From: Spirochaetota bacterium
GTDB taxonomy: Bacteria; Spirochaetota; Spirochaetia; Treponematales; Rectinemataceae
Assembly: GCA_029778945.1 (NCBI GenBank)
Contig: JAKPBN010000439.1
Span: 1-46,164, forward strand
DNA: 46,164 bases
Direction: 5' to 3'
Part shown: positions 20,405-45,792 of the stretch, in pieces
Layout: each line of letters opens with the position of its first letter
Position numbering within the stretch: the stretch's first letter is position 1
Program-made: the position numbers and the translations under genes
Notes under the pieces: generated by a model
Databases searched by the model: none
What the model was told of the DNA's origin: nothing
The model's input: only the letters and a program-made list of their open reading frames with translations

Positions 20405-20410
20405 GTCCCC

Positions 20411-20416
20411 ATTATA
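20411..20416 (-). promoter_or_regulatory. -10 box of the metallophosphoesterase gene
   Basis: A perfect TATAAT on the minus strand with 6 nt to the ATG at 20404. The -35 is poor and overlaps that of the divergent nitroreductase promoter. Confidence 0.6.
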
Positions 20417-20434
20417 CCCTAGATGCACCCGGTC

Positions 20435-20463
20435 TTGACTCCTCCCCGGGGCCGGGCCATCAT
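20435..20463 (+). promoter_or_regulatory. Nitroreductase promoter, leaderless geometry
   Basis: -35 TTGACT (20435-20440), a 17-bp spacer and a weak -10 CATCAT (20458-20463), 5 nt from the ATG at 20469. No ribosome site is present. Confidence 0.4.
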
Positions 20464-20468
20464 GGGCC

Positions 20469-21227
20469 ATGATCCATAATCCGACCATCGATGCCATGCT
20501 CAATCGCCGCTCGGTGCGCTCCTACACCAAGGAAAGGCCTTCCCAGGAAGTCATCGAGACTATCGTGAGGGCAGGCATGCAGGCACCCTTTGCCTCCCAG
20601 CTCCATAGCGTCCTGCTCTCGAAAAAGCCCCAGGGGCCCTTTGGGGCCCCTCTTTGGTTGACCATATGCGTGGACATCCACAAGCTCGAGCTGTTCATGG
20701 CTGCCCGGGGCTGGAAACGGAAGACCAATGACCTGGATATGCTCATGTTCGGGGCCCAGGACGCAGCCTATCTTGCGGAGAACATGGTGATCGCCGCCGA
20801 GAGCCTTGGCCTGGGCTCATGCTTTATCGGGAGCGCGCCCTATAACGCGGACAAGATCGCCGAGGAGTTTTCCCTACCCCCCAAGGTGATGCCCCTGGTG
20901 GGCCTTGTGATGGGCTTCCCCGCCGAGGACCTGCCCCCCCGGCCCCGCTATCCCCTCTCGTATTCCTTTTTCGAGGGCCGCTATCCTGAGCTCGGCCCGG
21001 CGGAGCTCGCCGAGGCGATGGAGGCGATGGACTCAGGCTACCTGGCCCAGGACTACTACCGCCGGGCCAAGGCCAAGCTCCTCCTCGAGGACGGCCGCGA
21101 GGATAGCTATACCTACGATGACTATTCCTGGACCGAGCATATCTCGAGGAAATGGGGCCAGTGGTACGAGACTCCGGAGGAGCTCCTCGAGCAGCTCCGG
21201 AAGCGGGGCTTTAATCCATGCCCATGA
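20469..21227 (+). CDS. Nitroreductase family flavoprotein
   Basis: A 252-residue FMN-dependent NAD(P)H oxidoreductase of the nitroreductase fold. LNRRSVRSYTKERPSQE at residues 11-27 is the conserved FMN-phosphate-binding start, and GAQDAAYLAENMVIAAESLGLGSCFIG is the central dimer helix and loop. LVGLVMGFPAEDLPPRPRYPLS and the extended C-terminal tail resemble the NfsA/FRP-type branch. The substrate is unknown. Its end overlaps the longest form of the channel gene by 10 nt, so it is probably the first gene of the run that includes the cyclic-nucleotide-binding transporters. Confidence 0.88.
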   Translation: MIHNPTIDAMLNRRSVRSYTKERPSQEVIETIVRAGMQAPFASQLHSVLLSKKPQGPFGAPLWLTICVDIHKLELFMAARGWKRKTNDLDMLMFGAQDAAYLAENMVIAAESLGLGSCFIGSAPYNADKIAEEFSLPPKVMPLVGLVMGFPAEDLPPRPRYPLSYSFFEGRYPELGPAELAEAMEAMDSGYLAQDYYRRAKAKLLLEDGREDSYTYDDYSWTEHISRKWGQWYETPEELLEQLRKRGFNPCP

Positions 21228-22573: not shown

Positions 22574-22585
22574 CCTATACCCCGG

Positions 22586-22606
22586 CGCCTAGGCGTCGGC
22601 TATACT
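22586..22606 (+). promoter_or_regulatory. Palindrome and -10 box upstream of the antiporter
   Basis: A perfect 10-bp palindrome CGCCTAGGCG (22586-22595) lies 5 bp before a -10-like TATACT (22601-22606). No -35 consensus is found at the normal distance, and the palindrome occupies the spacer. This is the layout of a promoter that needs an activator or is blocked by a repressor. Confidence 0.4.
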
Positions 22607-22650
22607 AAAAATGACAGGGCCTCCCCCATCAAAATCCGCCGGAGGTTGGC

Positions 22651-25065: not shown

Positions 25066-25090
25066 CCGGGCTGTCTGGGAGGTGATGGCC

Positions 25091-26389
25091 GTGGAAGTGC
25101 TGGTGCTGGGCGCTGGGGGCTTTGACAACGAGGGCCTCCCCTTCAACTCCTTCCTCATCGATGGCCACCTCCTTGTGGACTGCCCCCCGGATATCCTTGT
25201 CTCCCTGGGGAGGGAAAAGATCCACCTCTCGGCCATCGACTCGGTTTTCGTCTCCCATACCCACGGAGACCACCTTTTTGGCCTGCCCTTCCTCCTCTTC
25301 CATTTTTGGAAGCGGGGCCTTGTCCCGCCCCGCCTCGTGGGACCGTTTGACCTCAAGGAAGCCCTCCTCGCCGTGGCGGCCTTGGCCATCGATCCCGGCC
25401 ATCCCTATATCCCCTGGATCAAGGCCAGCTGCCGCTTTGAGGTGGTGGGCGGCGGCAAGGCCCAGGCCCTCGCGGGCTCGGCCCCGGAATTCTACAGGAC
25501 CTGGCACTCGAAGGAGACCTGGGGCCTCGGCCTTAGGCGGGGCGGCCGCCTCCTTTTCCAATACATCCCGGATACCTACTGGGACCCTGGCCGCCTCGCC
25601 TACCTCGGCCTGGGCGCGGAGCTTCTCGTCTGCGACGTGAATGGCTCGGGAGGCGTGAAGAGCGTCCACATGTCCAGGGAGGACCTTGAGGACGCGTTAG
25701 CTGGCCTTTCTGCCCCAGAATCCCCTGGCCTGGCCCCCGTGGCCGCCTTGGGGACCCATCTTTCGGCCTGGCTCGAGGAGGGCAAGGGCAGGCTGGGCAC
25801 CGTCCATCCCGGGATGGTCCTCGGCCTGGGCAAGGACCGCAGGGATGCCCTCCTGGACGAGCTTGCGGCCTATGCGGAGGCCTATGCGGGCCGGGCAGAA
25901 GAGGGCCGAAACGCCGGAAAGATAAGCTCCTTCCTCAAGGCCCAGGCGATGGCCTTTAGCCGCTCCTGCCTTGAGGGCCATATCACAGGCTCGGCCTTTA
26001 TCGTCAATCCCGCCCGCAACCGCAGCCTTTTTGTGAGCCACAAGAAGCTCGGCCGCTGGCTCCAGCCCGGGGGGCATTGCGAGGAGGGGGAGACGGCCTT
26101 TGAGGCCGCCTGCCGGGAGGCCCGGGAGGAGACTGGCCTTGAGGTTTCTCCCCTCCTCGGGGCCAGGCTCTTTGACATCGATGTCCACCCCATACCGGCC
26201 AGGGAGGGCGTGCCCGCCCATCTCCACTACGACCTGCGCTATCTCTTCATGGCCGAGGAGGGCGGGGAAACGGCGAGCGAGGAGTCCCATGCGGTCTCCT
26301 GGCTCGGCTTTGACGAGGCCATGGCAAGAAACACCGAGGCAAGCATCCGCAGGCCCATGGAAAAGCTCAAGCTCAAGGACCTCCCATGA
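25091..26389 (+). CDS. Fusion of metallo-beta-lactamase fold and Nudix hydrolase
   Basis: A 432-residue two-domain protein. Residues 1 to about 240 form a metallo-beta-lactamase fold: VFVSHTHGDHLFGLP near residue 55 is the HxHxDH metal site, and TWHSKETWGLGL and LLVCDVN are further strands, as in RNase Z-like or phosphodiesterase-like members. Residues about 295-432 are a Nudix domain with a complete box (Gx5Ex7REUxEExGU) from GGHCEEG near residue 327 to REAREETGLE. Nudix proteins cleave nucleoside diphosphates linked to another group. GTG 25091 is preferred because GGAGG is 8 nt upstream; GTG 25082 and ATG 25085 are too near it. It overlaps the next gene by 4 nt (ATGA). Confidence 0.85.
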   Translation: MEVLVLGAGGFDNEGLPFNSFLIDGHLLVDCPPDILVSLGREKIHLSAIDSVFVSHTHGDHLFGLPFLLFHFWKRGLVPPRLVGPFDLKEALLAVAALAIDPGHPYIPWIKASCRFEVVGGGKAQALAGSAPEFYRTWHSKETWGLGLRRGGRLLFQYIPDTYWDPGRLAYLGLGAELLVCDVNGSGGVKSVHMSREDLEDALAGLSAPESPGLAPVAALGTHLSAWLEEGKGRLGTVHPGMVLGLGKDRRDALLDELAAYAEAYAGRAEEGRNAGKISSFLKAQAMAFSRSCLEGHITGSAFIVNPARNRSLFVSHKKLGRWLQPGGHCEEGETAFEAACREAREETGLEVSPLLGARLFDIDVHPIPAREGVPAHLHYDLRYLFMAEEGGETASEESHAVSWLGFDEAMARNTEASIRRPMEKLKLKDLP

Positions 26390-30812: not shown

Positions 30813-32051
30813 TTAGATACTAGGGGAATAGGGCCTCGGCGCCAAGGGGTGGGATCCTTGGGCTAAGTCCCCCATCCTGGCACGCAGGAGCATCTCCACA
30901 AAGGCCCTGTCCCGGATCGGCGGTCCGGCAAACCAAAAGAGGTGGCTCCCACAGCCGCAATCGCTCGAGCCAAAGCCCGGGACAGGCCTGCCGCCGATCG
31001 CGCCCAGGGCCGCCGCGAGCTCGCACTCCCGGTTGACCCTAGAGACGATAGGAAAGCCCTCGATCTTGCCTGAGTAAGGCGTAAGGTAATCAAAGTGCCA
31101 GTGCCTTCCTTTTCTCACCTTCCTTTGGTGCCTGGCCAGGCGACTCGAGAGTCCCCTCTGGGCGGAGCCTGAGTAGACATACCAGCCCGGGGCAAAATCG
31201 AGGCTTCCTAGGGCCCCGACTTCGATGCGGTGGGCCTCGGCTAGTTCCAGCACTACAAGGTAGGAGCCCCGGTCTTCCTCGGCTAGGCTGGCGCTTGAGA
31301 GGTCGATGGGCAGGGCCGGATCTAGCAGCCTGACCCAACCCTCCTCATCGCACTCCGTCAGGGCCGCCCTCAGGTCCACCTTGTCCGCGACCCTGGCCAA
31401 GGTCGAGCTGAAGAGGGGATCTGTATGGATGTTTGGGGCGAGGCGGAGAGGCCGGCCATGGGCGACCATAAAAAGGACATGGCTTGCATAGCCTTCCTCC
31501 GCAAGCTCGGCCAGCTCCTCGAGGTGGCGGCTGGCCCGGAGGCTGGGGGCATCGGGGAACATGGCTAGCCCCTCCTCGACGAGGCTGCAGGTCTTTACTT
31601 CTATGAGGTGCCGTGGGCCGCTAGGCTCGGTACCCAGGAAGTCAAAGCGGGAATTGCCAACGGGATATTCTGCCTTGAGGGTCGTGCCCGAAGGAAAGAA
31701 GCCTGGCAGCACGAGCTTCCCGGCGACTTTGTTCATCCGCCCGGGAGCCAGGGGCACGACCGCGCCATGGTACCGGACCGCTACCGCTGTCCAGTTTGTC
31801 TTGGCCTGGCCAGGCCGAGGGAGCCTAGACTCTGCCTTTTCCCCCGGGAGCCTTTCCTCAAGGATTAGCGGCGTGCCCGGGATCGCAAATTCGAGGATCC
31901 TCCCCGGATTGGGGCAGTGGCAGACTAGCTCCTCATCTCCATCCCTCGCAATTATGACAAATCTATTGGGCCGCCCCACAAAGACCGCCTCCCGGTCCCG
32001 CCTAAAGATTCTCGTCTTCTCCGTACAGCCCCCCTGTAATCCCCCCCCCAA
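30813..32051 (-). CDS. sfsA: Fusion of SfsA and DUF123 (GIY-YIG-like)
   Basis: A 412-residue fusion. The SfsA part covers about residues 15-240: AVFVGRPNRFVIIA, CHCPNPGRILEFAIPG, the PGRMN loop and EVKTCSLV (nuclease-type Glu-x-Lys). The C-terminal DUF123 part covers about 262-400: GWYVYSGSAQRGLSSRLARH, HWHFDYL and FGSSDCGCGSHLFWF. SfsA was named for sugar fermentation stimulation and has a nuclease-like fold; DUF123 resembles GIY-YIG endonucleases. The only ordinary start is TTG 32051, which has no ribosome site and lies at a run of nine C (G on this strand). An ATC at 32007-32009 has GGAG 9 nt upstream and would give a start closer to family length. The start is therefore uncertain. Confidence 0.83.
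   Translation of the reverse strand: MGGGLQGGCTEKTRIFRRDREAVFVGRPNRFVIIARDGDEELVCHCPNPGRILEFAIPGTPLILEERLPGEKAESRLPRPGQAKTNWTAVAVRYHGAVVPLAPGRMNKVAGKLVLPGFFPSGTTLKAEYPVGNSRFDFLGTEPSGPRHLIEVKTCSLVEEGLAMFPDAPSLRASRHLEELAELAEEGYASHVLFMVAHGRPLRLAPNIHTDPLFSSTLARVADKVDLRAALTECDEEGWVRLLDPALPIDLSSASLAEEDRGSYLVVLELAEAHRIEVGALGSLDFAPGWYVYSGSAQRGLSSRLARHQRKVRKGRHWHFDYLTPYSGKIEGFPIVSRVNRECELAAALGAIGGRPVPGFGSSDCGCGSHLFWFAGPPIRDRAFVEMLLRARMGDLAQGSHPLAPRPYSPSI
32041..32049. repeat. Run of nine C (poly-G on the coding strand)
   Basis: Nine consecutive C on the plus strand, i.e. G9 at the 5' end or leader of the sfsA-like gene. On the minus strand an AATATT -10-like sequence precedes it directly. Confidence 0.7.
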
Positions 32052-32263: not shown

Positions 32264-34618
32264 TTAAGGAGAGGTGGGGGTAACGGTAACCGTCACCCTC
32301 CCGCTCACAACCTCTGCGTGGGGGAATCTTGCCTGGAAGCTATGCTTCCCCGCCTGGAGGGGCCAGCGGGCCTCATAGGGATAGGCTACCCGGGCAAATT
32401 CCTTGCCATCCACTAGCCAGAGGATCTCCGGGATCGGGGGGCTTACGGTAGCCCTCAGCGCCAGGGTCTGGTAGCGGACCGGGGTCTCGGGGTCAATATA
32501 GAGGCGCAAGCCATCCTGGGGGGCCACAAGGTCGACCCGGGCATCCCTCAGGGCCCCGGGATCGCTCCTAGGTATCGCATAACCTCTAGCCCTGGAGAAG
32601 GCCGCATACTCCGGCGGCAGGAGGGTCACGCTCCTGGCCACGAGGCGGCTCGCGGGTGTCGTGGGGAGGGCTTCCTCGCCGGTCCTCGAGTCCACCATGA
32701 GGACCACGTGCACGGGGCAGGTGGACCGGGGCTCAGATCCTGGGGGGAGGAATTCCAGGCAGGGATGGGGGCAGTGGGGACCGGCTAGGTAGCCTGAGTC
32801 CGGGCAAAGCCTAAAGGCCTGCCAGGACCGGGGCGGGGGAAAGGCCTCCTCGTCGATGCCCTGGACGGCCCCGGGCTGGAGGGCCTTGAAGAGCTCGAGG
32901 AGGAGCTCCGCGGCGGTCGAGCCCGCCACATGGTTCATCTCCCGGTTTCCCGAATGCCCTATCCAGATCCCGGCCACGTAGCGCCGCGAATAGCCCAGGG
33001 CCCAGGCATCCCTAAAGCCATTGGAGGTGCCCGTCTTGACCGCCACGGGAAAGGGGAAGTTGGTGAGGGCCGTGGAGGCAAAGGAGGGGAGGCGGGCCTC
33101 GGGATCGGAGAGAAAGAGCGAGGCCATGCGGGCGGAATTCTCCGATAGAAGCGCCGATTCCGCCTGGGGGGGGCTATCGGCCAGGAAGCGCAGCTCATAG
33201 CTCCGGCCCTCCCTGGCCAGGACCCCGTAGGCCCGGACAATCCTGTCCAGGCTCGTGTAGATCCCTCCTACGGCCAGGCCATAGCCATAGAAGTCCGGGC
33301 CCCTCTCCTGGTCGTGGAGGCCCAGCCTGCCCAGGAAGGCATAGGCCTCGTCCAGGCCGATGCCCTGGAGGACCCGGATCGCGGGCACGTTGCGCGAATT
33401 AGCCAGTGCCCGGCGGTAGAGGAGGGGCCCCAGGTAGGAGTCGTCGAAGTCGGTCAGGCTGTAGAGGCCCTTGCCGTCCTGGATGCGCAGGGGCAGGTCT
33501 GGGATGATCGAGGCCGGGCCAAAGGCTCCGGTCTCGAGGCCCAGGGCATAGAGGAAGGGCTTAAGGGTCGAGCCCGAGGACCTCTGGACCCGGCAATAGT
33601 CAATTGAACCCTTGTTGGCCTCGTCAAAATAGGAGGCCGAGCCCACATAGGCCCTCACCTCCCCGGTCTGGGCATCGGCTATGAGGACGGCCATGTTGTC
33701 CGCCCCCAGGGCCCTGTAGCGGCCTATGGCGGCCTTGGCCAGGCTCGAGGCCAGATCCTGCAAGCCGGGGTCAAGGCTCGTGCGCAAGGGCTTCATGAGC
33801 TTCCTTGCGGCGGCCATCCCGTACTCGTCCATCACCCTAAAGACAAAGTGATAGGCATTCTCCGGCCTCTCCTCCCGGTAAAAGGGCGGGATGCCCGCAA
33901 GCTCAGCTTTGGATGCCTCAAGGCCCGAGGCGTCCAGGATGCCCATCCGGCTGAGCTGGCCCAGGATAGCCTCGGCCCGCGCCAGGGCCGTGTAGAAGCC
34001 CTCAAATCGAAATAGGGAGCGGTCCGCCGGATCCTGGGGAATGGCGAGGAGGAGGCTCGTCTCGGCCCAGGAGAGGTCTTGGACGGGCTTGCGGAAGTAC
34101 CGCCGGGCCGCATAGGAGATCCCGTAGAGGTTGCCCCCCTCGGGGATCAGCTTAAGATAGTGGCGCAGGACCTTTTCCCGGCCATGGACCAGGGTGAGGA
34201 GGAGGGCAAGGTTAGCCTCGTCGAGCTTGGCCCCGAGGGTCCGTGGCCGGGGGAACTCGAGGCGGGCCACCTGCATCGCGATCGTCGAGCCCCCCTCGCG
34301 CTTGCCCGAAAGCCCGTGGACAAAGGCCCGCACGAGGCCTCGGGCGTCGACCCCCGGGTGGGTCTCAAACCTCCGGTCCTCGATGGCGATCACCGTCGCG
34401 CGGACTTTCTGCGGGAGGGGATCGGGGAGGTCCCAATAGCCTAAGGAGCCATAGACTGCCTCCCCATCGGAGAGGAAATTGCCCTCCCGGTCCTCAAAGA
34501 GGGGGGTCGGAGGTGGGCTCGAGAGGGCCAGCCGGGGCACAAGAAGGGCCGCCCTCCCGAGCCCAAAGGCTAGGAGGGCGGCCAGGAAGAGGACCTTGTA
34601 GAGGCCCTTCAGCCTCAT
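32264..34618 (-). CDS. pbpC: Penicillin-binding protein 1C
   Basis: A 784-residue bifunctional peptidoglycan synthase anchored by one N-terminal membrane helix (about residues 8-28). The transglycosylase domain has AIEDRRFETHPGVD with catalytic E80 and GGSTIAMQVARL at 109-120. The transpeptidase domain has the SxxK motif in SSGSTLKPF near 350, SRN in NSRNVPAIR and KTGTSNGF near 527. The C-terminal ~90 residues form the BiPBP_C beta domain typical of PbpC. It overlaps the alpha-2-macroglobulin gene by ATGA, the same pairing as E. coli yfhM-pbpC, where the inhibitor and the wall-repair enzyme are thought to act together after envelope damage. Confidence 0.95.
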   Translation of the reverse strand: MRLKGLYKVLFLAALLAFGLGRAALLVPRLALSSPPPTPLFEDREGNFLSDGEAVYGSLGYWDLPDPLPQKVRATVIAIEDRRFETHPGVDARGLVRAFVHGLSGKREGGSTIAMQVARLEFPRPRTLGAKLDEANLALLLTLVHGREKVLRHYLKLIPEGGNLYGISYAARRYFRKPVQDLSWAETSLLLAIPQDPADRSLFRFEGFYTALARAEAILGQLSRMGILDASGLEASKAELAGIPPFYREERPENAYHFVFRVMDEYGMAAARKLMKPLRTSLDPGLQDLASSLAKAAIGRYRALGADNMAVLIADAQTGEVRAYVGSASYFDEANKGSIDYCRVQRSSGSTLKPFLYALGLETGAFGPASIIPDLPLRIQDGKGLYSLTDFDDSYLGPLLYRRALANSRNVPAIRVLQGIGLDEAYAFLGRLGLHDQERGPDFYGYGLAVGGIYTSLDRIVRAYGVLAREGRSYELRFLADSPPQAESALLSENSARMASLFLSDPEARLPSFASTALTNFPFPVAVKTGTSNGFRDAWALGYSRRYVAGIWIGHSGNREMNHVAGSTAAELLLELFKALQPGAVQGIDEEAFPPPRSWQAFRLCPDSGYLAGPHCPHPCLEFLPPGSEPRSTCPVHVVLMVDSRTGEEALPTTPASRLVARSVTLLPPEYAAFSRARGYAIPRSDPGALRDARVDLVAPQDGLRLYIDPETPVRYQTLALRATVSPPIPEILWLVDGKEFARVAYPYEARWPLQAGKHSFQARFPHAEVVSGRVTVTVTPTSP

Positions 34619-37600
34619 CGTCCGGTCGGAGACGGTGCCGGGCTGATCACCACAAGGCTACCCTCGCTCGTGCCCGTCACCGGGAGTTCGTAGAGGACCT
34701 GGGCGACCGCCGGGGGCAGCTGGAAGCTGCCCTCGAAATTCGCCCTGACCCGGAAGTAGAAATCGTAGGTGCCCGCCGGGAGGCTATTGTAGTAGAAGGT
34801 TACCTCGTCATCGGAGTAGTCGGCATAGCTGGGCTCAAGGCTCATACGCCCCGCAGGCTTGGCCTCGGCGGGGGCCGTGGCCAGCTTGGGATTGAGGGGC
34901 TCAAAGCCCGAGGCCAGGGGGACCCGGATGGCTACAAAGACCCTGTCCTTGGGGTTGATCACCCGCACATGGTCCTCGATCACGGAAGCCTGGACCAAGG
35001 GCAGGGCCTTGCCCGCGCTCGCCGGCAGGCGGGCTTGGAGGCTCGTGCCCTTGCCGTAGTCCAGGAGCTCCCGGGTGACCACAAAGCCCTCGTTCCGGGC
35101 CTTGAGCTCCGAGCCCGGGGCCGCGGGTATCCAGGTGGTATCCAGGAGGAGGTTGGGCGGGTTCTTGGGGTCGAGGCTCTTCATCCTCACCTTGAGGCTC
35201 GCGTCCGAGGCGAGCCTCAGGGAGGCTACGGTCTTGCCCGCGCCGTCGAGGGCCCGCCAGGACCGGCCGTCCCAGACCTCGGCCACCGAGGCCTTCTTGG
35301 GCAGGACCTTGAGAGCCTCGGTCAAGGACAAGAGAACCTGGGTATTGGTATAGGTATCCCCCCAGCCCTCATCCCCCGCGGCCTCGAGGAGCCAGGTCAG
35401 GATAGCCTTGGTCTCCGGGGTCCCCGCCCGGTCCCGGGCAAAGACCGAGTAGAGGGCCGCCACGCTCGCATAGTCGCTTGATAGGAAGGGATTGCCAAAC
35501 CAGGCCCGCTTCTGCTGGAGGCCGGCAAAGACTATACCCGAGGCCTGGCGCTGGAAGACCGCCTGGCCATCGATCCTCTCCCGGAGCTTTTTCAGGGCCG
35601 AGGCGCTCACGCCCTTCTTGCCCTGGAGGGTCAGCCAGACCTTGGCCTGGCTGGTGATGTCCGCGTCCTGGGCCAGGGACAGGAGGTCCTCGGCATAGGA
35701 AGGTACATAGGATCCCGCGGCGTCGAGGGCAAAGAGGGCCAGGGCCCGCTCGAGGAGGGAATAGCCCTGGGAGAAGTGGTCGTAGTCCGAGCGCAGGGCT
35801 TCCTTAAGTGCCTGGATGGGCCGGGCCAGGAGGCTCGCAGGGACAGTCCTGCCCGAGGCCTTGGCCAGGGACAGGAATTCCACCACATAGGCCGTGAGAT
35901 AGACCGAGCCCTGGGAGCCCGGATAGAAGGCGTAGAGGCCGTTCGGCGTGATAGCCTGCTCCAGGTAGCTGAAGAGCCCGGCGATATAGGGCTCGGGCAC
36001 CTGGTATTCCTCGGGTAGGCCAGCCTTGCCCAGGGCGACCTCCAGGGCCATGGGGGCGTGGACCTTGGCCAGCCTCTGCTCGGTGCAGCCGTAGGGGTAG
36101 CTTAGCTGGAAGCGCAGGGAGGACAGGACCCGGACAAGCTCGGGCTGGGACACGAGGTAGACGGTCTGGACCGTCGAGCCCGGCCGTGCCGCCTCGGGAG
36201 GAAGGGGGAGGGGCCAGGTGGCTCCGGCCTCGGCCTTGAAAGTCGAGCCCATGCGGCGGATCACCGTGTCCCTCCGGACGGGGAGCTCGAGGAGGAAGGC
36301 GTCCTTGGCCCCGTCGGCCAGGCGCTGGACCCCTAGGGTCACGGAGACGGTGGAATCCTGGGTCTTGGCCAGGCCCAGGGGCGCCACGAGGGGATAGAGC
36401 AGTTTGGCCGGCAGTACCTTGTCGAGGGTCAGGTTAGCCGCTTCAGCGCTACCCTTGTCCTTTATGGTGAGGCCGCCGCCGAGTTCGAGCTCGGATCTGG
36501 CAGGCCCGCCCTCGCCCTCGACTACCCGGGCTATGCCGCCGGCCTTGATGCCGTCCCCGGGGCGCACAAAGCGGGGCAGGGATTCCTGGACTACCACGGG
36601 GAGCCTCAGGGCCACGACGGACTTGCCGGTGCCAAACTTGTCAAAGCCCGAGGTGGCGATCGCCCGGAGGGCGAATTCCGTGAGGTTGTCCGGTAGGGTA
36701 AAGCTCACCTCGCCCTGGCCCTTGCGGACCACGATGCCCGGATTGTAATAGGGCACGGTCTTAAAGTTCTTGCGGACCGTGGACTTGTCCAGGAGGGGGC
36801 CAAAGGCCATGGACTTGGACATCTCCGCCATGTCGCCCCCGGCCAGCTCCTCGAAGGGCAAATTGCCCACGGCCAGGTTGCGGCTGTCCGAGATCTTGAG
36901 CCTGGAGGCGACATCGGTAATAAAGGCCGTGAGGGGGCTGCCAAAGCGCTCCCGGGCCAGGGAGAGGACGGCCCGGTCCACGAGCCAGAGGGCCACCTCC
37001 CCGTCGACGGGCTTGCCTTCCCGGTCCTTGACCAGGATCTTGACCGTAAAGCTGGAGCCCGGAAGGGCCTTGGTCTCATGGACGAGGTCGACCACGAGGC
37101 GGTTTATGTCCGGATCGACGACTATCCAGGTGGTGTTGGCCACCGAGAGGGGCCGCATCCTGTCCTGGCCCCCCTGGAAGGCCGGGCTCCCGGGAAGGCG
37201 CCCCCGCATCAGGATAAGGTGGACCGGGAAGCGGGGCACGAGGTCGGTGCTCACGGGCAACTCGACGAGGCCCTGGCCGTCCTTGATATCGACCCAACTA
37301 TAGGCATTTCCCGAAGGTTTCTCGACCACCACGAGGGCCCGGGCCTCCTGGAAGGGGCTCTTGATAAGGAGGCGGGCGGTCTCCCCCGGGGTATAGGCGT
37401 TCTTCTCCAGGCTTGTCTCAAAGACGGCGGCGGTGGTTTTTTTCCAGGCCACCGGGGTGGGGCCGGAGATATAGAGGTCGCGCTTGACCGACTGGACCCG
37501 GCCGGCCTCGTCCCGGCCCAGGATCTCGACAATGTAGACCCCGGCGTTCTGGACCGGCAGTTCAAGGTCGAGGGTCCCCGCCTGGGAGACTATCGCCTTC

Positions 37601-40413
37601 TCCAGGACGGGCACGTCGACCACGTCGGAGACATACTTGGCCTGGCCGGTAGAGAGGTCGCTCTCGGCGAGGTAGGAGTGCCACTGGCGCTCATACAGCC
37701 TCAGGGTCAGCTCCTTGCCGGCGAAGGGCTTTTCCTCGTGGTTGAGCACCACTATGGAGGGCCGGGCGGCCATCTTCTCGGTCTCGAACTTCGGGAGCTT
37801 GAGGCCGATGGAGAAGGGAGGCAGGGCATAGACCGTCGTGGACTGGGAGACGGTCTGGGCATCGGCTCCGCGGACGCTGGCCTGGATCCGGTAGTACCGG
37901 GCCTCGACGGACTGGGCCTTCCGGGGATCGACCTCGAGGCTGGCCGAGCCTGTGTCGTCGGTCACGTCCTCGTAGTCGCTTGAGCTCACGCCCTCGTCCC
38001 GGTATTCCCCGCCCACGGAGAGGTAGGTGGAAAAGTCATAGCCTGGATAGGCCGCGGGAGAAAGGGTCCAGCTACCCTCAGCGACGGACCACTCCACGGC
38101 CTGGCCCGCGACCTTGCCTCCCGCGTAGAAGGAGGCCGTGAGGAGGACCTTGAAGGGCTTGTCAAAGGCCACCCGCTCGGGGGCGTTGAGGCTGAGCTCG
38201 AAGCTGGGGACCCGGTAGGCCTCCTTCTGGAAGCTGACCGTGGCCAGGGGCCGGTCATCCTTGTCCAGGAGCCGCGCGTTATACGAACCCGTGGGCAGGT
38301 CCTTCTCGTCAAAGAGCTTGTAGAACCAGCCATTGCCCTGGAGGCTCACGGGGTAGCGGTATTCCTTGCCGTCCGGGGCCCGGATCACGAGGCTGCGCTT
38401 GGCCTGGGCATCCTCGGCCAGGATGAGGCCCTTCTGGCGGACCCGCACATAGCCCTGGATATGGACGGCCTCCTCGGCCCGGTAGAGGGGGCGCTCGGTA
38501 AAGAGGTAGGCCAGGTGGAGGGGGGCCTCGTCCTTGGTCTGGGGCTCCCGGTTGAGCCAGGAGAGCCAGGCCGAGCCCGAGCCGAACCAATGGTTGTTGT
38601 GGAAATAGGGCGGGGCCTGGGCCGGATCGATCACGAGGCTGTCCGTTCCGGACTCCACGACGAGGCGCCGGACCACCTCGTCCAGGGCCTTGGTGTGGCT
38701 ATAGCGCCAGCGGCCATCCTTGTCCGTCGTGCCCTGGATTAGGGCCGGGAAGCTCGGACCGTCCTTGGGGTCGTCCCTGCGCGTCTCCAGGCGGATCCGG
38801 GCCCCGGGCACCGGCTTGGCCGTGGCCAAGGAAGTGACCGCAAAGACCAGGCCTGCCTCCTCCTCGACGAGGGTCAGGCAGAGGTCGGTGACCTGGATTC
38901 TCACATAGGAACGGGTGGAATCCGGGCCCAGGCGGCGATAGCCCACGAGCCAGGTGCCCGGCGTCCTTTCCTTGCCCAGGCGGGCCAGGATCGGCCCCAG
39001 GTCGAGGCCAAAGCTCGCGGCCCCTCCCTTTTCCCGGGTGGGCAAGTCCACGATTCCGGAGAAGTCAGGGCTCCCCAGGAGGCGGAGCTGGGAGGCCAGG
39101 TTCGAGCCCCTGAGCGGCTCCTCCCCGGGCATGGGCGGCGGGGCGGACTCGCTCACCTTGACCTCCCCCTCGGGGAAGGGCCAGTAGTTCGGATCCAGGG
39201 GATCGATGTGGTAGAGGCGCAGATCGACCTTGTCCACTCCCCGGGCCTGCATGGGAAAGGCTTTGGGCCCGTCCCGCTCGAGGATAGCCTGGCCCGCCGA
39301 CCACTGGACGTAGGGGGTGAGGCCCTTGAACCAGAAGTGGAACGACGAAGGGGCAAAGGCCGAGAGGCTGCGGCCCGAGGCCGATCGCAAGGCTCCCGGC
39401 TCGACCTTGAGGCGGTAGTCCGTGTCCGCGTCCCGGTCAAACTGGAGGAGGATGCGGGAGCCTGAGAACTCAAATCGCAGGTTCTTGACCGCAGGCTCGA
39501 AGGACACCATCGAGCGCAGGACCGAGAGGGAGGTCCCGGACTCGGGGGGCTCGGAGAATTCCAGGAAGAGCGGCGCCGGGGACGAGCCCAGGCCGATAGC
39601 CTGGTCCGCCGGGTAGTTGGAGCCCGAGGACGAGACCGGGTAGGCCGAGCGGCCCGAGCCAAAGGAAAGGAGGCGGAAGTCTGTCCGGGTGGACCAAGTG
39701 TAGCTGGCCACGGCCCCGGGGATCCCCGAGTCCAGGGAAAGCCTCAAAGAGAGGGTCACGGCCTTGCCATCCCCGATGGGCTTGGCTAAGGTTAGGCGAT
39801 ACTGGGCCGGGGACTTCCGGTCGCTCCGGTCTATCTCCTTGATGGAGAAGTCCCGCTTGGTGAGCCTCACCGCGTCCTGGGATCCCAGGCCGGGCAGGGC
39901 CCTCACCTCGAGGCTGACCATCTCGGCTAGGTCCGCCACCGCCAGGGGGGTCGGAAAGGTCAGGTTGAGGCCTTCGATGCCCTTGAGGTTGGCCGAGCCG
40001 GCCTGGGGGTTGAGGCTTGTGGGCGGGGCCATCAGGGTCGAGCGGGTCCAGGTCCCGGCCTCACCCTTGAAGGTAAACGTGCGCAGGGCCGGCCAGGCCT
40101 CGGCGGGGAGGAACTGCAGGGTCCTGGCGTCAAGCCAGCGGTATTCTCCGGGCTGGCTGGGCTGGATGGAGAGGATGGCCTGGGCGTCGTCCCCGGGGCC
40201 GCCGTTCACGGGCCCCCGGTCGCGGTCAAAGAAGAGGGTGACCGGATCGTATTCCCGGAGGTAGCGCTCGGGCATGAGCCTTTGGCCTGTTGCCGCGCCA
40301 GGGGCCCCAGTCTGGGCCCAGAGACCCTGGAGGGAGGCCGCCACGAGGAGCATGGCGATGAGGAGCCGGGAAGCCCGTCCGGGGCCGGAATTGCCAATTG
40401 TGTGTTTCATCAT
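34615..40413 (-). CDS. Bacterial alpha-2-macroglobulin with thioester
   Basis: A 1932-residue exported protein of the YfhM-type alpha-2-macroglobulin family, which traps attacking proteases in the periplasm. A signal peptide covers about residues 1-33 (ending LWAQTG); no lipobox is seen, unlike many bacterial members. Repeated macroglobulin beta domains fill the first ~1200 residues, including LFTERPLYRAEEAVHIQGYV and FETSLEKNAYTPGETARLLI. The thioester motif YGCTEQ has Cys 1443, intact, within the TED helical domain (to about residue 1700). ATG 40413 overlaps the stop of the giant upstream gene; the adjacent ATG 40410 has better spacing to GGGAG. pbpC follows by ATGA overlap. Confidence 0.94.
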   Translation of the reverse strand: MMKHTIGNSGPGRASRLLIAMLLVAASLQGLWAQTGAPGAATGQRLMPERYLREYDPVTLFFDRDRGPVNGGPGDDAQAILSIQPSQPGEYRWLDARTLQFLPAEAWPALRTFTFKGEAGTWTRSTLMAPPTSLNPQAGSANLKGIEGLNLTFPTPLAVADLAEMVSLEVRALPGLGSQDAVRLTKRDFSIKEIDRSDRKSPAQYRLTLAKPIGDGKAVTLSLRLSLDSGIPGAVASYTWSTRTDFRLLSFGSGRSAYPVSSSGSNYPADQAIGLGSSPAPLFLEFSEPPESGTSLSVLRSMVSFEPAVKNLRFEFSGSRILLQFDRDADTDYRLKVEPGALRSASGRSLSAFAPSSFHFWFKGLTPYVQWSAGQAILERDGPKAFPMQARGVDKVDLRLYHIDPLDPNYWPFPEGEVKVSESAPPPMPGEEPLRGSNLASQLRLLGSPDFSGIVDLPTREKGGAASFGLDLGPILARLGKERTPGTWLVGYRRLGPDSTRSYVRIQVTDLCLTLVEEEAGLVFAVTSLATAKPVPGARIRLETRRDDPKDGPSFPALIQGTTDKDGRWRYSHTKALDEVVRRLVVESGTDSLVIDPAQAPPYFHNNHWFGSGSAWLSWLNREPQTKDEAPLHLAYLFTERPLYRAEEAVHIQGYVRVRQKGLILAEDAQAKRSLVIRAPDGKEYRYPVSLQGNGWFYKLFDEKDLPTGSYNARLLDKDDRPLATVSFQKEAYRVPSFELSLNAPERVAFDKPFKVLLTASFYAGGKVAGQAVEWSVAEGSWTLSPAAYPGYDFSTYLSVGGEYRDEGVSSSDYEDVTDDTGSASLEVDPRKAQSVEARYYRIQASVRGADAQTVSQSTTVYALPPFSIGLKLPKFETEKMAARPSIVVLNHEEKPFAGKELTLRLYERQWHSYLAESDLSTGQAKYVSDVVDVPVLEKAIVSQAGTLDLELPVQNAGVYIVEILGRDEAGRVQSVKRDLYISGPTPVAWKKTTAAVFETSLEKNAYTPGETARLLIKSPFQEARALVVVEKPSGNAYSWVDIKDGQGLVELPVSTDLVPRFPVHLILMRGRLPGSPAFQGGQDRMRPLSVANTTWIVVDPDINRLVVDLVHETKALPGSSFTVKILVKDREGKPVDGEVALWLVDRAVLSLARERFGSPLTAFITDVASRLKISDSRNLAVGNLPFEELAGGDMAEMSKSMAFGPLLDKSTVRKNFKTVPYYNPGIVVRKGQGEVSFTLPDNLTEFALRAIATSGFDKFGTGKSVVALRLPVVVQESLPRFVRPGDGIKAGGIARVVEGEGGPARSELELGGGLTIKDKGSAEAANLTLDKVLPAKLLYPLVAPLGLAKTQDSTVSVTLGVQRLADGAKDAFLLELPVRRDTVIRRMGSTFKAEAGATWPLPLPPEAARPGSTVQTVYLVSQPELVRVLSSLRFQLSYPYGCTEQRLAKVHAPMALEVALGKAGLPEEYQVPEPYIAGLFSYLEQAITPNGLYAFYPGSQGSVYLTAYVVEFLSLAKASGRTVPASLLARPIQALKEALRSDYDHFSQGYSLLERALALFALDAAGSYVPSYAEDLLSLAQDADITSQAKVWLTLQGKKGVSASALKKLRERIDGQAVFQRQASGIVFAGLQQKRAWFGNPFLSSDYASVAALYSVFARDRAGTPETKAILTWLLEAAGDEGWGDTYTNTQVLLSLTEALKVLPKKASVAEVWDGRSWRALDGAGKTVASLRLASDASLKVRMKSLDPKNPPNLLLDTTWIPAAPGSELKARNEGFVVTRELLDYGKGTSLQARLPASAGKALPLVQASVIEDHVRVINPKDRVFVAIRVPLASGFEPLNPKLATAPAEAKPAGRMSLEPSYADYSDDEVTFYYNSLPAGTYDFYFRVRANFEGSFQLPPAVAQVLYELPVTGTSEGSLVVISPAPSPTGR

Positions 40414-43400
40414 TCTCCCTCGCTCAGGGTCTCCCCTTCATCGCCATAGTCCCGGTAGTCGCCATCGCCCTCGTACTCGCCATCCATACCGTCCGGTGGC
40501 GGCTCTTCTCCGGCATCGAGCTGGAGCCGGGCTCCCTTTCCGTGGAGGGGCACCCCTATGGAAGGGCTGGGCCTTCCTCCGGCCTTGCGGTAGGCCTCGA
40601 TCACGTCCTGGGGCACGCCGTTGCGGCTTCCAAAAACCCCTTCCACGACAAGGCGGTATTCGGAGGTTTCCTCAGGCAAGCCCCTGACCACGGCCAGGTA
40701 GTCCCCGGGCTCCAGGTATTCGAGGATAAGGGTCCCCGAGGCCACGAGACCCTGCTTGCCGTCGTAGAGGAGGAGGCCCAGGCCGTCTTTGTCGGCCTTT
40801 AGGCCCAGGCCCACGAGGCCCTCGTCCTGGACCTTGAAGGACCAGGCCTGGAATTCCTGGGCGGCGATCAGGCCGCCGGGCCTGTCCTCCGCAGAGCCTA
40901 TCTTTCCGGCCTCGACCTTGGTGGCCCTGAGCCAGCCGCTACCGGGGCTGTCCCTGCCCGGCCTTTGCCAGACCCGATAGTCCCCGGCGGGCAGCCAGGC
41001 AAAGAGGTGGATATCCCCACCGTCGGTGCCCAGGCTAGCCCGGGTTTCCAGGCCCTTGCCGGAGATCGCGAGGACCCCCGGGCCGGGGGCGGAAAGATCG
41101 ACAAAGCCCGGCGCCGAGAGGCTGAGCCTAAAAGCCTGGGCCTTTGTCGAGAGGGCGGCGATGCCCTTCAGCTCTGCCAGGCCTTGGGTAAGCCCAGCCT
41201 GGGCCTGGTCCTCGGTGAGGCCCTGCATCTCCTGGCCTGGCTTGGCAAGCCATACCCGCACGAGGCCCTGGCTCGGGCCCAGGACTAGGCGGCCCGCCAC
41301 GGCGGAAAGGGCCTGCCAGAGGCCGGTCCCGGCCTCAAGGCGGCGATAGCTGCCATCGTTGCCCAGGAAATCCATGCCCTCGACTCTGCCAGTGACACAA
41401 AGTACGTCTCCGGCCTGGGCATTGATTTGGAGTTCGAGGCCCTCGGGCCCGATGGATCGGCCTTCCCAGGCGCGGTCCCTGTCCACGGCTAGGGCCGGAA
41501 GCTGGGGCAAAAGCTCCAGGCGGAACCGGGACTCGGTCCTGCCCGTGTTGATGACATAGAGGGTAGAGGCCGGAAGGTCGAGCTTCCGGGCTAGGCGCCC
41601 ATCCAGGGAATTGCAGCCCCCCAGGGCCTTGCCTTCCTTCCAGGCCGCGATCACCAGGTCTTCTCCCAGGAGGAGGTCGAGCCTGCAGACTGGGACTTCA
41701 AGGGCCAGGGCCTTTCCGGGACCCAGGGCTAGGGTTTTGCGGGCTCCGGCCTGGAGGCTCGTCGGGGTTTCCAGGGGATAGGCCTCAAGGCTATAGCCCA
41801 GGCGCCGGCTAACGTCCGGGCTTGGCTCGCCGTCCCAGAGCCTGGCCTTCCAGGCCCCGGGGGGGAGGAGGGCGAGGCTACCCTGGGACCAGGCCTGGCT
41901 GGCCCACCAATCCCTGGACGGGGCGGCGGGGTTGTTGGCTCCGTTCGCCGAGATGCCCGCCCTGAACCCTCCCCGGGTATCGGCCTTGAGGAGGAGGACC
42001 TCATCCTTGGCCGAGGCCAGATAACTTCCCTGGTCTTGGCCGGCCAGGCTGAGGGCCCCGCTGTCACCGGCCGCCAGGCTCAAGGGGAGGAGCCTTGTAC
42101 TCGTCTCCGGGGACCAGAGCCAGCCCCCCTCGGCCTTGACGGAAAAGGCTTCCCGGCCCGGATCCTCGCAGGGCATGTCGAGGCCGGGGGAGGCGAGGAT
42201 CCTCCCCTCGGTGGCCAGGCTGGAAAGGCCCTCTCCATTGAGGACCTTGAGGGCCTCTCCGGCTTCGAGGACCAATTCAGTGGCTAGGCTGCCGGGCTTT
42301 TTTTCCGTCAGCCTTCGCAGGGCCAGACCCGCCTGGACCGGGCTCGGGCTTGTCACATAGAGGCTCAGGTCGCCGCCCTTTCGCAGGGGGATGGCGATCC
42401 TGCCCTCGGCCAGGGCCAGGAGATCCTTGCCCCGGTAGAGGCGCAGGTCAGCCCGGCCTCCGCTCGCCTCGATCACATAGAGTCCCTCCGGGAGGTCTTT
42501 GTCGAGGCCTAGGATCGCCCCATCCCGGTCGAGGGCCAGGCTTGCGGTTCCGCCTACAGCGAGGGCCTTGCCCTGGCGGGGCTTGCGCTCCTCGAGCCGG
42601 AATTCCGAGGTCTTGCCGCCTCCGGCCAGGGAGCGCAGCCTCAGGGTATAGTAGCCCGCCGGCAGGGCCTGGGCTATGTCGAAGTTCCAGTCCGCCCCAT
42701 TGTCATCCGATGAGGCCAGGACCTGGCCCGAGCCGGAGACGAGGTCGGCGGCCAGGTCGTTCTGGCCTTGGCTCCAGATCTCGTAAAAACCCTCCCGGGG
42801 AAGGGACAGGGTGAGCTCGGCCCGGCGGCCGGTCTCGATGCCCAGGCTCTGGGGGATTCCCGGGGCCAGGACGGCCGTGGAGAGGAGTAGGGAATAGGAG
42901 AGCTGGCTGGCCTTTTCCTTGGGCCTCAGGGAAAGGACATAGTCCCCGGCCTTGAGCTCAAGTTCCTGCTCCCCCTCGGCCAGGGCCTGTCTTGGACCTG
43001 GGCCCTCGAGGCTGGCCACAAAGCCCTTGGGAAGGGAAAGCCTGGCATGCAGGTCCGCCGGGATTGTCAGGGCATATCGGTCGGCTTCTGGGCCCTCGAG
43101 CCAGAGGGCCTGGACCCGGCGGTTGGGCTCGAGGCGGCGCGGGCCCGGGCCCTGGAGGACGGGGCTGGCCTCGGGCAGGATCGCCATCGAGCTGACCCTC
43201 CTCGTCTCGATGGAGAGGGGCAGGGAATAGAAGGCGTAGGAGCCCGGGCCCAGGAGGAGGCTGGCCTCCCCGGAGCCTGTAAACAAGGGGAAGCCCTCGG
43301 CGTCCTCCAGGCGGATCCCATAGCCTGAGCCTATCCCTATGGAGGAAAGCCGGACCCTCGCCTCCGCAGGAAGGGAAATCGCATAACGCAGCATCGAGTC

Positions 43401-45671
43401 TGCGGGGAGCCTGCGGCTGTCCACAACCCCGGGCGCCAGCTCGAGGCCGGCGGTTCCGGCCGCGGCCGCGGCCGCCGGCACGGCGGTGAGCCTCAAGCCC
43501 GCCCGCCCGGCGGATTTTCCCTCGGCCTTGAGCTCAAGATAATAGCGCCCCGGGCCCAGGTAGGTCCTTATCGAGGCGTTGCGCCCGTAGCCATTGGCCT
43601 TGGCGTCCCGGATCCTCTCCCGGGCGGCGCTCCGCAGGATAAGGGAGGTGGCGAGCCTGCCCTGGCTCTCCAGGGCGTAGACCGAGCCCTGCCGGACCTC
43701 AAAGGCCGCGAAGAGGCTTTCATTGCGCTGGAAGTCCCGCCAGAGGGTCTGGCCCGGAGCCAGGAGGGGAAGGCCGGAGGCAAAGTCCGTGACCCGGCCC
43801 TCGCCTAGGTCGGAGAGATCCTCCTGAAGGCCCAGGCTAGCCCTGGCTATCGTCTGGCCGGGATTGGAGACGGTGAGGTCCCTTGGCCCGGCCTTGAGGC
43901 CTCCTCCCTGGGCCAGCTTGCCCGCCTCGGTGGAAAAGCCTATCTGGCTTGAAAGATCGCCCACGGTGCCGGACCTAGCCGGATTTATGGGAAGCCTCAG
44001 CTCCTCCTTGGGCCCAAGCTCGAGGTCCAGGCCCCCGGGGATCGCCAGGGGGAAGGGCCTAAAATCGCTGCCCGTGGGGCTTGTTCCTCGCTGGCCCGTC
44101 AGGATGTTTATGCCCGAGGACAGCTCCGAGGCCGTGAGGGCCCAGGAGAGGGAAGTCCGGGCCGGGCTCGGCTCGGAGCCAAGTTCCTCCCGGCCGGTCT
44201 GGCCAAGGCCATCCCGGAGGATCACAAAGTCGAGGACCCCCAGCTCCTTGGCCTGGATCCTTAGGAGGTGATAGCCCTTGGTCAGGCTGACGGAGGATTT
44301 GTCCGGACCGGCCTCGTAGCTTTGGCGGCCCTGGGCAAGGCCTGCGTCCAGGGGGCTGATCGTATAGACCGCCCTGGCCTGGCCCAGGCCCGTTTTTTCC
44401 GCTATCCGATAGCTCGCCGCCTCGTCGACCCGAAGGTACATCGTGAGGCTTGTGGTCCCCAGGAGGTTGGCCCTTCTTCTCAAGACATCCCGGCCCGAGA
44501 GGGGGGCGCAAAAGTCCCGGACGATCTCCGCCCGGCGGCCGCCTCCCGAGACGGGCTGCCAGCGATAGACAAGGCCTGTGGGCTCAAGCTCCGCGTTTCC
44601 TGTGCGGGGGGCGAGGATTGTCAAAAGGCCACCGCTTCCCGTGCGGGGAGCCTCGTAGCTCGCGTTGCCCTGGCTCGCCCAGGCGTCGAGGCGGAGGATG
44701 TCTCCAGGCTGTCCCTTCACGGTCACCAAGGCCTGGCCCCGGGGGAGGTCGACCATGCACCAGGGCAAGGCCGACCGCGGATTGATCGAGTCGCTGTCGC
44801 TCGTGGACAGGCGGTCTCCGCCGGGGTTGTAGCTGCCCGCGGCCAGCCTCGTGTCCACCTTGTCATTGCGGCCAAGGCTTGCCCCCCTCAGGCCCTCGAC
44901 GAGGACAAAGTCCCGGCCAAAGGGGGAGAGCCTCAGGTCCATGCGGCCCCCCAGGGGCAGGCGCAGGAAGCCCGAGCGGATATAGAGGGGATGGCTGCCA
45001 TCCTCCTTGGCCCAGGCCCTTTGCGGACCCCCGTAGACCTTGATGAGGTAGGATCCTGCCTTGAGGACCTTGGAGGCGCAGGCCCAGCCCATGGGCTTGC
45101 CGGTCTCCCCCTGGACCTCTTCCCGGGGCTTCCAAGAGCCTACGATATACTGGCCCTCCCTCCAGACTTCCAGGAGGGAGAGATTGCGGCCCAGGGCCTC
45201 GACCTCAAGGGGGCCGTCCTCCCTAAGCTCCAGCCAATAGGAGGCCGATTCGAGGTCCGAAAGGCTTGTGCCCTGGGTCTGTCCCTCGGCCAGGCGGGGC
45301 CAGGCTCCCGGCCTATCGCCATTTTTCTCCGCATAGGTCCTCACCTGGAGGGCCACATCCCCGCCAGCGGCCCGCAGATTCTCAAGCCGGAGCTTGTATT
45401 GGCCCGGATCGAGGCTTGCGTCTATCCTGCCGTCGCTCTGCCCCGAGGATCCGGCCCGGTAAAGCTGGCCCTCCAGCCTGTCATGAAGGCTAAAGGCCAG
45501 CCCGAGGGGAGACGTCGCGATGATGGAAATCCTGCCCGGCTTGGCCATAGTGAGGATAGCCTCGGGCTTGTCCCCGGGCTTGAGGCTTGTCACATCGAGG
45601 CTTTGGGCCGAGAGCCTAGACAAGGCTCCAAGGGCCAGCAGGACGAAAAGGACGGGTGAATTTTTCTTCAT
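40410..45671 (-). CDS. Giant secreted beta-rich protein of unknown function
   Basis: A 1753-residue protein with a signal peptide (about residues 1-22, ending LSRLSAQS). No known enzymatic motif is seen. The chain looks like many successive beta-sandwich modules resembling pre-peptidase C-terminal (PPC) domains: repeated units end in strands such as GQYKLRLENL, GSYLIKVYGG, GRYYLELKAEG, GDYVLSLRPK, GYYTLRLRSL and GDYLAVVRGL, spaced irregularly. About ten cysteines are scattered. The C-terminal 30 residues are very acidic (EYEGDGDYRDYGDEGE). AGGA lies a few nt before the ATG. It is the first gene of the operon with alpha-2-macroglobulin and pbpC, overlapping the next gene by 4 nt. It may be a partner or scaffold of the inhibitor. 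Confidence 0.85.
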   Translation of the reverse strand: MKKNSPVLFVLLALGALSRLSAQSLDVTSLKPGDKPEAILTMAKPGRISIIATSPLGLAFSLHDRLEGQLYRAGSSGQSDGRIDASLDPGQYKLRLENLRAAGGDVALQVRTYAEKNGDRPGAWPRLAEGQTQGTSLSDLESASYWLELREDGPLEVEALGRNLSLLEVWREGQYIVGSWKPREEVQGETGKPMGWACASKVLKAGSYLIKVYGGPQRAWAKEDGSHPLYIRSGFLRLPLGGRMDLRLSPFGRDFVLVEGLRGASLGRNDKVDTRLAAGSYNPGGDRLSTSDSDSINPRSALPWCMVDLPRGQALVTVKGQPGDILRLDAWASQGNASYEAPRTGSGGLLTILAPRTGNAELEPTGLVYRWQPVSGGGRRAEIVRDFCAPLSGRDVLRRRANLLGTTSLTMYLRVDEAASYRIAEKTGLGQARAVYTISPLDAGLAQGRQSYEAGPDKSSVSLTKGYHLLRIQAKELGVLDFVILRDGLGQTGREELGSEPSPARTSLSWALTASELSSGINILTGQRGTSPTGSDFRPFPLAIPGGLDLELGPKEELRLPINPARSGTVGDLSSQIGFSTEAGKLAQGGGLKAGPRDLTVSNPGQTIARASLGLQEDLSDLGEGRVTDFASGLPLLAPGQTLWRDFQRNESLFAAFEVRQGSVYALESQGRLATSLILRSAARERIRDAKANGYGRNASIRTYLGPGRYYLELKAEGKSAGRAGLRLTAVPAAAAAAGTAGLELAPGVVDSRRLPADSMLRYAISLPAEARVRLSSIGIGSGYGIRLEDAEGFPLFTGSGEASLLLGPGSYAFYSLPLSIETRRVSSMAILPEASPVLQGPGPRRLEPNRRVQALWLEGPEADRYALTIPADLHARLSLPKGFVASLEGPGPRQALAEGEQELELKAGDYVLSLRPKEKASQLSYSLLLSTAVLAPGIPQSLGIETGRRAELTLSLPREGFYEIWSQGQNDLAADLVSGSGQVLASSDDNGADWNFDIAQALPAGYYTLRLRSLAGGGKTSEFRLEERKPRQGKALAVGGTASLALDRDGAILGLDKDLPEGLYVIEASGGRADLRLYRGKDLLALAEGRIAIPLRKGGDLSLYVTSPSPVQAGLALRRLTEKKPGSLATELVLEAGEALKVLNGEGLSSLATEGRILASPGLDMPCEDPGREAFSVKAEGGWLWSPETSTRLLPLSLAAGDSGALSLAGQDQGSYLASAKDEVLLLKADTRGGFRAGISANGANNPAAPSRDWWASQAWSQGSLALLPPGAWKARLWDGEPSPDVSRRLGYSLEAYPLETPTSLQAGARKTLALGPGKALALEVPVCRLDLLLGEDLVIAAWKEGKALGGCNSLDGRLARKLDLPASTLYVINTGRTESRFRLELLPQLPALAVDRDRAWEGRSIGPEGLELQINAQAGDVLCVTGRVEGMDFLGNDGSYRRLEAGTGLWQALSAVAGRLVLGPSQGLVRVWLAKPGQEMQGLTEDQAQAGLTQGLAELKGIAALSTKAQAFRLSLSAPGFVDLSAPGPGVLAISGKGLETRASLGTDGGDIHLFAWLPAGDYRVWQRPGRDSPGSGWLRATKVEAGKIGSAEDRPGGLIAAQEFQAWSFKVQDEGLVGLGLKADKDGLGLLLYDGKQGLVASGTLILEYLEPGDYLAVVRGLPEETSEYRLVVEGVFGSRNGVPQDVIEAYRKAGGRPSPSIGVPLHGKGARLQLDAGEEPPPDGMDGEYEGDGDYRDYGDEGETLSEGE

Positions 45672-45758
45672 GGTATCCTCGGGGGGGAGGGCTTCCTGGG
45701 GGATGAGGGCATTATTTCGGTCGGCCTTGGGAATGTCAACCTTGGCCGGATTCTCGCC

Positions 45759-45786
45759 TTGGAAAATCCCAGGCCATGTCTATAAT
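45759..45786 (+). promoter_or_regulatory. gpmA promoter, leaderless geometry
   Basis: -35 TTGGAA (45759-45764), a 16-bp spacer and a perfect -10 TATAAT (45781-45786), with only 6 nt to the ATG at 45793. No ribosome-binding sequence fits. Confidence 0.7.
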
Positions 45787-45792
45787 TAGGGC

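What the first reader, a model, noticed from the sequence alone, without database searches (positions are those of the whole stretch)
34615..45671. Giant secreted beta-repeat protein coupled to alpha-2-macroglobulin and PbpC
Seen: a 1753-aa exported protein of PPC-like modules, a 1932-aa thioester alpha-2-macroglobulin and pbpC are joined by two ATGA overlaps under one upstream start. Known: bacterial alpha-2-macroglobulin and pbpC form a two-gene unit in many proteobacteria, thought to protect and repair the envelope. Inference: the giant first gene is an undescribed third component, perhaps a scaffold, decoy or bait that presents proteases to the inhibitor. Its translational coupling suggests fixed stoichiometry.
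Basis: partly seen in the sequence, partly recalled or inferred. Interest (0 to 1): 0.72.

Follow-up and report, generated by a model that had tools for sequence, protein, structure and literature searches.

The report
Giant partner of macroglobulin-PbpC operon
A very large exported protein with no known family sits directly in front of one particular lineage of bacterial alpha-2-macroglobulin (a protease trap) and of the cell-wall repair enzyme PbpC, in spirochaetes and on Rhizobium plasmids, so this two-gene envelope-protection unit seems to exist in a version with an undescribed third part.

Summary
At 32264-45671 (minus strand) lie a 1753-aa exported protein, a 1932-aa thioester alpha-2-macroglobulin (A2M) and PbpC, joined by two ATGA overlaps, with one good promoter-like site in front. 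Homologues of the giant occur in about ten other spirochaete genomes and on seven Rhizobium plasmids. In 17 of 17 loci where the next gene can be read it is an A2M, followed by PbpC wherever the contig continues (16 of 16). None of 42 other spirochaete A2M loci has it. Giant-linked A2Ms form one clade (SH-aLRT 100), as do the nine spirochaete PbpCs, and the three genes diverged together (r = 0.97). The giant folds as a chain of beta-sandwich modules, roughly nine PPC-like, with no recognised enzyme domain. Rhizobium giants carry an N-terminal LprI ('lysozyme inhibitor') domain and their A2Ms have lost the thioester cysteine. Best reading: a dedicated periplasmic partner in an A2M-PBP1c envelope-protection system, by analogy with MagB. 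Physical contact is unproven; 'bait' and 'fixed stoichiometry' are unsupported.

The parts
40410..45671 (-). giant exported protein, 1753 aa, chain of beta-sandwich modules (roughly nine PPC-like), no recognised enzyme domain
   Evidence: ORF and translation; AF2 models pLDDT 85.3 and 78.4; fold matches; profile self-comparison
34615..40413 (-). thioester alpha-2-macroglobulin, 1932 aa
32264..34618 (-). pbpC (PBP1c-type transglycosylase/transpeptidase), 784 aa
40410..40413 (-). ATGA overlap giant/A2M
34615..34618 (-). ATGA overlap A2M/pbpC
45711..45739 (-). sigma-70-like promoter TTGACA-17-AATAAT 40 bp before the giant
   Evidence: consensus match, not proof
36076..36099 (-). thioester motif YPYGCTEQ (A2M residues 1439-1446)
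43482..43772 (-). PPC / collagen-binding-type module, giant residues 634-730
   Evidence: Z 13.1, rmsd 1.9 over 92 aa to ColG CBD
40638..40910 (-). last PPC-type module, giant residues 1588-1678
   Evidence: Z 13.5, rmsd 1.7 over 88 aa to ColG CBD
40590..40613 (-). conserved C-terminal motif PQDVIEAY (P-x-x-[VI]-x-x-x-Y) of the giant, predicted helix
   Evidence: in most homologues of both phyla, not in G124

Best explanation
This is a three-gene version of the bacterial A2M-PBP1c envelope-protection unit. Shown: the giant is a dedicated, co-inherited member of the operon, carries an export signal, is built of beta-sandwich modules and has no recognised enzyme domain. Inferred: in the periplasm it is a structural partner of the secreted, apparently unanchored A2M, stabilising it or positioning it near the wall and PBP1c, much as MagB holds and stabilises MagD in Pseudomonas. 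In some lineages the giant is itself a predicted lipoprotein, and in Rhizobium it carries an LprI domain, so the unit may face proteases and wall-cutting enzymes together while PBP1c repairs the wall.
For: 17 of 17 readable loci have giant then A2M on the same strand, and 16 of 16 then PbpC, in Spirochaetota and Rhizobium. 42 other A2M loci of the phylum: no giant. Giant-linked A2Ms are one clade; spirochaete PbpCs too, and divergences of the three genes correlate at 0.97. Giant fold. All giant-linked A2Ms examined have a plain signal peptide without lipobox. Giants of G436 and G562 have a lipoprotein signal. LprI fusion in Rhizobium. Rhizobium A2Ms lack the thioester Cys yet keep the giant. 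Precedent: MagB stabilises MagD and brings it to the inner membrane (PMC5764988).
Against: No physical contact shown or modelled. Most giants have no membrane anchor either. Lack of a lipobox is not special to this clade. The giant diverges faster than its supposed partner (26% against 43% mean identity). The window's giant lacks LprI, and PF07007 is not proved to inhibit lysozyme (PMC7933661). The range outside spirochaetes and plasmids is unsampled.
Confidence: 0.5

Rival explanations
1. The giant works on its own in the same defence: its modules bind peptidoglycan, polysaccharide or wall-cutting enzymes such as lysozyme, in parallel with A2M (proteases) and PBP1c (repair), without forming an A2M complex.
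For: PPC-type modules resemble collagen-binding and lysozyme-inhibitor (PliG) folds (last module: PliG Z 12.4, rmsd 2.2 over 96 aa); LprI fusion in Rhizobium.
Against: PliG shares only the fold (9% identity) and ties with other beta-sandwich proteins; LprI is absent in spirochaetes; the strict tie to one A2M clade is not needed by this model.
Confidence: 0.27
2. Bait or decoy: the giant presents or attracts proteases for the A2M.
For: PPC domains are frequent parts of secreted proteases (established knowledge), so an interaction with proteases is conceivable; co-occurrence with A2M.
Against: The chain is predicted as well-folded modules, not an exposed protease-sensitive stretch; the A2M has its own bait-region domain; no specific evidence.
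Confidence: 0.1
3. Passenger: a generic PPC-repeat surface protein that shares the operon without a functional link.
For: Unlinked smaller proteins with PPC-type modules exist in the phylum (weak hits; L125).
Against: 17 of 17 loci in two phyla keep the order; giant and this A2M clade are always found together.
Confidence: 0.08

Closest known systems
Type I A2M - pbpC gene pair (E. coli yfhM-pbpC)
   Same: A2M with thioester followed by PbpC on the same strand; proposed periplasmic defence and wall repair (PMC5764988)
   Different: extra giant gene first; A2M of a separate clade; plain signal peptide, whereas YfhM begins with a lipoprotein-type signal (LAGC)
Pseudomonas mag operon, type II A2M MagD with MagA/B/F
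   Same: A2M without lipobox encoded with dedicated exported partners; MagB stabilises MagD (PMC5764988)
   Different: no recognised Pfam family in the giant, Mag partners are 26-60 kDa; the window's A2M has a thioester; pbpC is in the operon here
PPC / collagen-binding domains (ColG, ColH; PF04151)
   Same: fold of several modules, Z 13.1 and 13.5
   Different: below Pfam cut-off; a long array with no protease domain
LprI family, PF07007
   Same: Rhizobium giants carry this domain at the N-terminus
   Different: absent in the window's giant; lysozyme inhibition by PF07007 alone is unproven (PMC7933661)

Membership tests
Type I bacterial alpha-2-macroglobulin (window 34615-40413) | thioester motif CxEQ | tested here: met
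   YPYGCTEQ; kept in all nine full-length spirochaete members; lost in Rhizobium members, P or S for C
Type I bacterial alpha-2-macroglobulin (window 34615-40413) | bait-region and macroglobulin domains | tested here: met
   A2M_BRD 60.9 bits against 22.7; MG2, A2M and bMG10 above cut-off
Type I bacterial alpha-2-macroglobulin (window 34615-40413) | traps proteases | not testable with these tools
   needs biochemistry
PBP1c / PbpC (window 32264-34618) | Transgly + Transpeptidase + BiPBP_C | tested here: met
   all above Pfam cut-off
PBP1c / PbpC (window 32264-34618) | NCBIfam equivalog TIGR02073 cut-off | tested here: not met
   best family, 440 bits against 494: PBP1c-type, but below the equivalog threshold
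PPC domain family PF04151 (giant) | sequence match above curated cut-off | tested here: not met
   no PPC match in P0001; homologues 16.4 and 20.8 bits against 25.9
PPC domain family PF04151 (giant) | PPC / collagen-binding fold | tested here: met
   Z 13.1 and 13.5 to ColG collagen-binding domain
mag operon partner proteins | match to a recognised Pfam family in the giant | tested here: inconclusive
   no Pfam family in the giant above cut-off; the Mag partner sequences themselves were not compared
LprI family PF07007 (giant) | LprI domain present | tested here: not met
   absent in the window's giant; present in Rhizobium homologues, 33.2 and 36.5 bits against 22

The most novel reading that the evidence does not exclude
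A third class of bacterial A2M system: a giant beta-sandwich protein and a distinct A2M clade form one periplasmic complex with PBP1c that both inactivates invading enzymes (proteases and, in some lineages, lysozyme through an LprI arm) and directs wall repair, and that has moved between phyla as a three-gene cassette.
Probability: 0.25. Interest if true: 0.8.

Novelty: new variant of a known kind. Interest (0 to 1): 0.62.

Why it matters
Why bacterial A2M genes sit next to pbpC is an open question with only a hypothesis behind it (trap proteases, repair the wall). This operon adds a dedicated third protein, found in two phyla, with one lineage fusing it to a putative lysozyme-inhibitor domain. 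It offers concrete genetics, in Rhizobium strains that can be worked with, to test whether the three act as one protection machine, and a natural comparison within one clade between A2Ms with and without the thioester.

Tried and rejected
Known surface-layer, adhesin, defence or phage-protein identity: no family above cut-off in Pfam or NCBIfam and no match in PHROGs or PADLOC; no match among phages. No PDB sequence relative of the profile. Foldseek hits to complement C5, TEP1 and A2ML1 over about 1000 columns have TM-scores of 0.1 or less and were taken as common beta-sandwich matches. Short weak hits in other spirochaetes are small PPC-type proteins, not giants. Lack of a lipobox as a hallmark of the clade was dropped, since many other A2Ms lack one. 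The thioester column came from a faulty pattern and was replaced. A two-sequence profile missed most homologues that a three-sequence profile found, so the early count was too low. A viral contig scan found no relative. No paper found describes a giant partner of A2M-pbpC; most subscription papers are not in the library. PAN-A2M fusions in root nodule bacteria (PMC4653623) are a different protein.

Full report
WHAT IS THERE. The window is contig C191 of a spirochaete genome assembly of 4.07 Mb in 504 contigs. The relative with the most similar operon, G007, corresponds to contig JANXYQ010000077.1, 'Spirochaetaceae bacterium'. On the minus strand lie a 1753-aa exported protein (40410-45671), a 1932-aa A2M (34615-40413) and a 784-aa PbpC-type enzyme (32264-34618), with ATGA overlaps at both junctions. 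A promoter-like site TTGACA-17-AATAAT ends 40 bp before the giant; within the operon the scan gives only one weak match, inside the A2M gene. Two further ATGA-type overlaps occur in the same window, and giant-A2M gaps in homologues run from -4 to +152 bp. The coupling is ordinary operon architecture and no evidence for fixed stoichiometry.

THE A2M AND PBPC. The A2M has MG2, bMG3, bait-region, A2M and bMG10 domains and the thioester motif YPYGCTEQ. The third gene has Transgly, Transpeptidase and BiPBP_C domains; its best NCBIfam family is PBP_1c, below the equivalog cut-off. The same genome has a second A2M-pbpC pair (C293) with no giant and a hydrophobic, membrane-anchor-like N-terminus.

DISTRIBUTION. 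Within the family, 2 of 30 genomes carry the giant; the same-genus genome has neither the giant nor this A2M, and G009 has only a distant A2M. A two-sequence profile found one more homologue outside the class (G124). With three sequences, full or partial homologues appeared in G436, G453, G463, G484, G548, G562, G668 and G679. In all ten spirochaete loci where the next gene can be read it is an A2M on the same strand, and in all nine where the contig continues PbpC follows (and the window). tblastn then found homologues on seven Rhizobium plasmids (about 27% identity, E down to 2e-50; found again with a second query). All seven have the order giant, A2M, PbpC. One of them, C104, is in pieces as annotated, and NXC24 and CB3060 have identical A2Ms, so the seven are not seven independent cases. 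In contrast, none of 42 other A2M loci of the phylum has a giant.

ONE CLADE. On a tree of 51 A2Ms the nine full-length giant-linked spirochaete ones form a single clade (SH-aLRT 100; 1 label change against a shuffled mean of 8.5). With Rhizobium, E. coli YfhM and ordinary A2Ms of Sinorhizobium, Azospirillum, Deinococcus and Gemmatirosa added, the fifteen giant-linked ones are still one clade (100). These are quick trees with long branches elsewhere, but the stem of this clade is long and well supported. The nine spirochaete PbpCs also form one clade (100/100, careful tree). Log identities of giant, A2M and PbpC correlate at 0.97; the giant diverges fastest (mean identity 26% against 43% and 44%). 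The patchy occurrence fits transfer or repeated loss of the whole cassette. Transfer between phyla is an inference, and its direction was not tested.

WHAT THE GIANT IS. No family of Pfam, NCBIfam, PHROGs or PADLOC matches it above cut-off. AlphaFold2 on alignments of eleven rows gave confident all-beta models of both halves (mean pLDDT 85.3 and 78.4). The best structural matches are collagenase collagen-binding / PPC domains: residues 634-730, Z 13.1, rmsd 1.9 over 92 aa, and residues 1588-1678, Z 13.5, rmsd 1.7 over 88 aa. Profile comparison along the chain supports roughly nine PPC-related modules; residues of about 1070-1450 are beta-rich but not recognisably PPC. After the last module most copies in both phyla have a short conserved motif P-x-x-[VI]-x-x-x-Y, predicted as a helix; the acidic tail beyond it is not conserved. 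The giants of G436 and G562 start with a lipoprotein signal. The Rhizobium giants start with a signal peptide and an LprI domain, PF07007, above cut-off in the two scanned and with the same sequence pattern in the others read.

THIOESTER. All nine full-length giant-linked spirochaete A2Ms keep CxEQ. The six intact Rhizobium ones have P or S in place of the cysteine. So the giant persists where covalent trapping is presumably lost. This recalls type II MagD, which traps a protease without a thioester and depends on operon partners: MagB brings it to the membrane and keeps it from being degraded (PMC5764988).

HOW IT PROBABLY WORKS. Shown: export signals, modular beta fold, strict co-occurrence and co-inheritance with one A2M clade and with PbpC. 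Inferred, from the periplasmic defence-and-repair hypothesis for A2M-pbpC and from the mag complex (both in PMC5764988): the giant is the structural partner that stabilises or positions the unanchored A2M near the wall and PBP1c. The LprI fusion suggests that the unit also faces wall-cutting enzymes; but PF07007 has not been proved to inhibit lysozyme, and one LprI protein, ScwA, had no such effect (PMC7933661). I give about 0.5 to the partner model, 0.27 to an independent binding or inhibitor role, 0.1 to a bait, and 0.08 to a passenger.

LIMITS. No complex was modelled or measured. Genome searches covered only this phylum, in overlapping samples. Other phyla were sampled only through plasmids, phages and one narrow pattern scan of genome contigs, so the true range is unknown. 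The literature library lacks most subscription papers, so 'undescribed' means not found here.

Noticed in passing
L008 (G000:C293) 5636-13791: The same genome has a second A2M-pbpC pair without a giant; its A2M has a hydrophobic anchor-like N-terminus and sits on a long branch near the E. coli YfhM group.
   Followed up: partly
L126, L128 upstream of the annotated giant start (about 11446-12000): The public gene calls for the giant start too late and leave out the signal peptide and LprI domain that are in frame upstream.
   Followed up: yes
L129 (Rhizobium sp. C104 plasmid) 11446-25394: Giant, A2M and PbpC genes are all split into pieces in this copy, which suggests decay or sequencing errors.
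   Followed up: no
L117 2484-3182 and L118 1970-2668: In G548 and G453 a fourth gene, a 232-aa exported protein without a Pfam match, follows pbpC.
   Followed up: partly
window 21218-25065: A cyclic-nucleotide-binding ion channel gene is followed by a sodium/proton exchanger that also ends in a cyclic-nucleotide-binding domain.
   Followed up: no
window 25082-26389 and 30813-32051: Two apparent fusions: metallo-beta-lactamase fold + NUDIX, and SfsA + DUF123.
   Followed up: no
window 45672-45792: The giant and a histidine-phosphatase-superfamily gene (phosphoglycerate-mutase-like) are divergently transcribed; each strand of the short spacer has a promoter-like site.
   Followed up: partly
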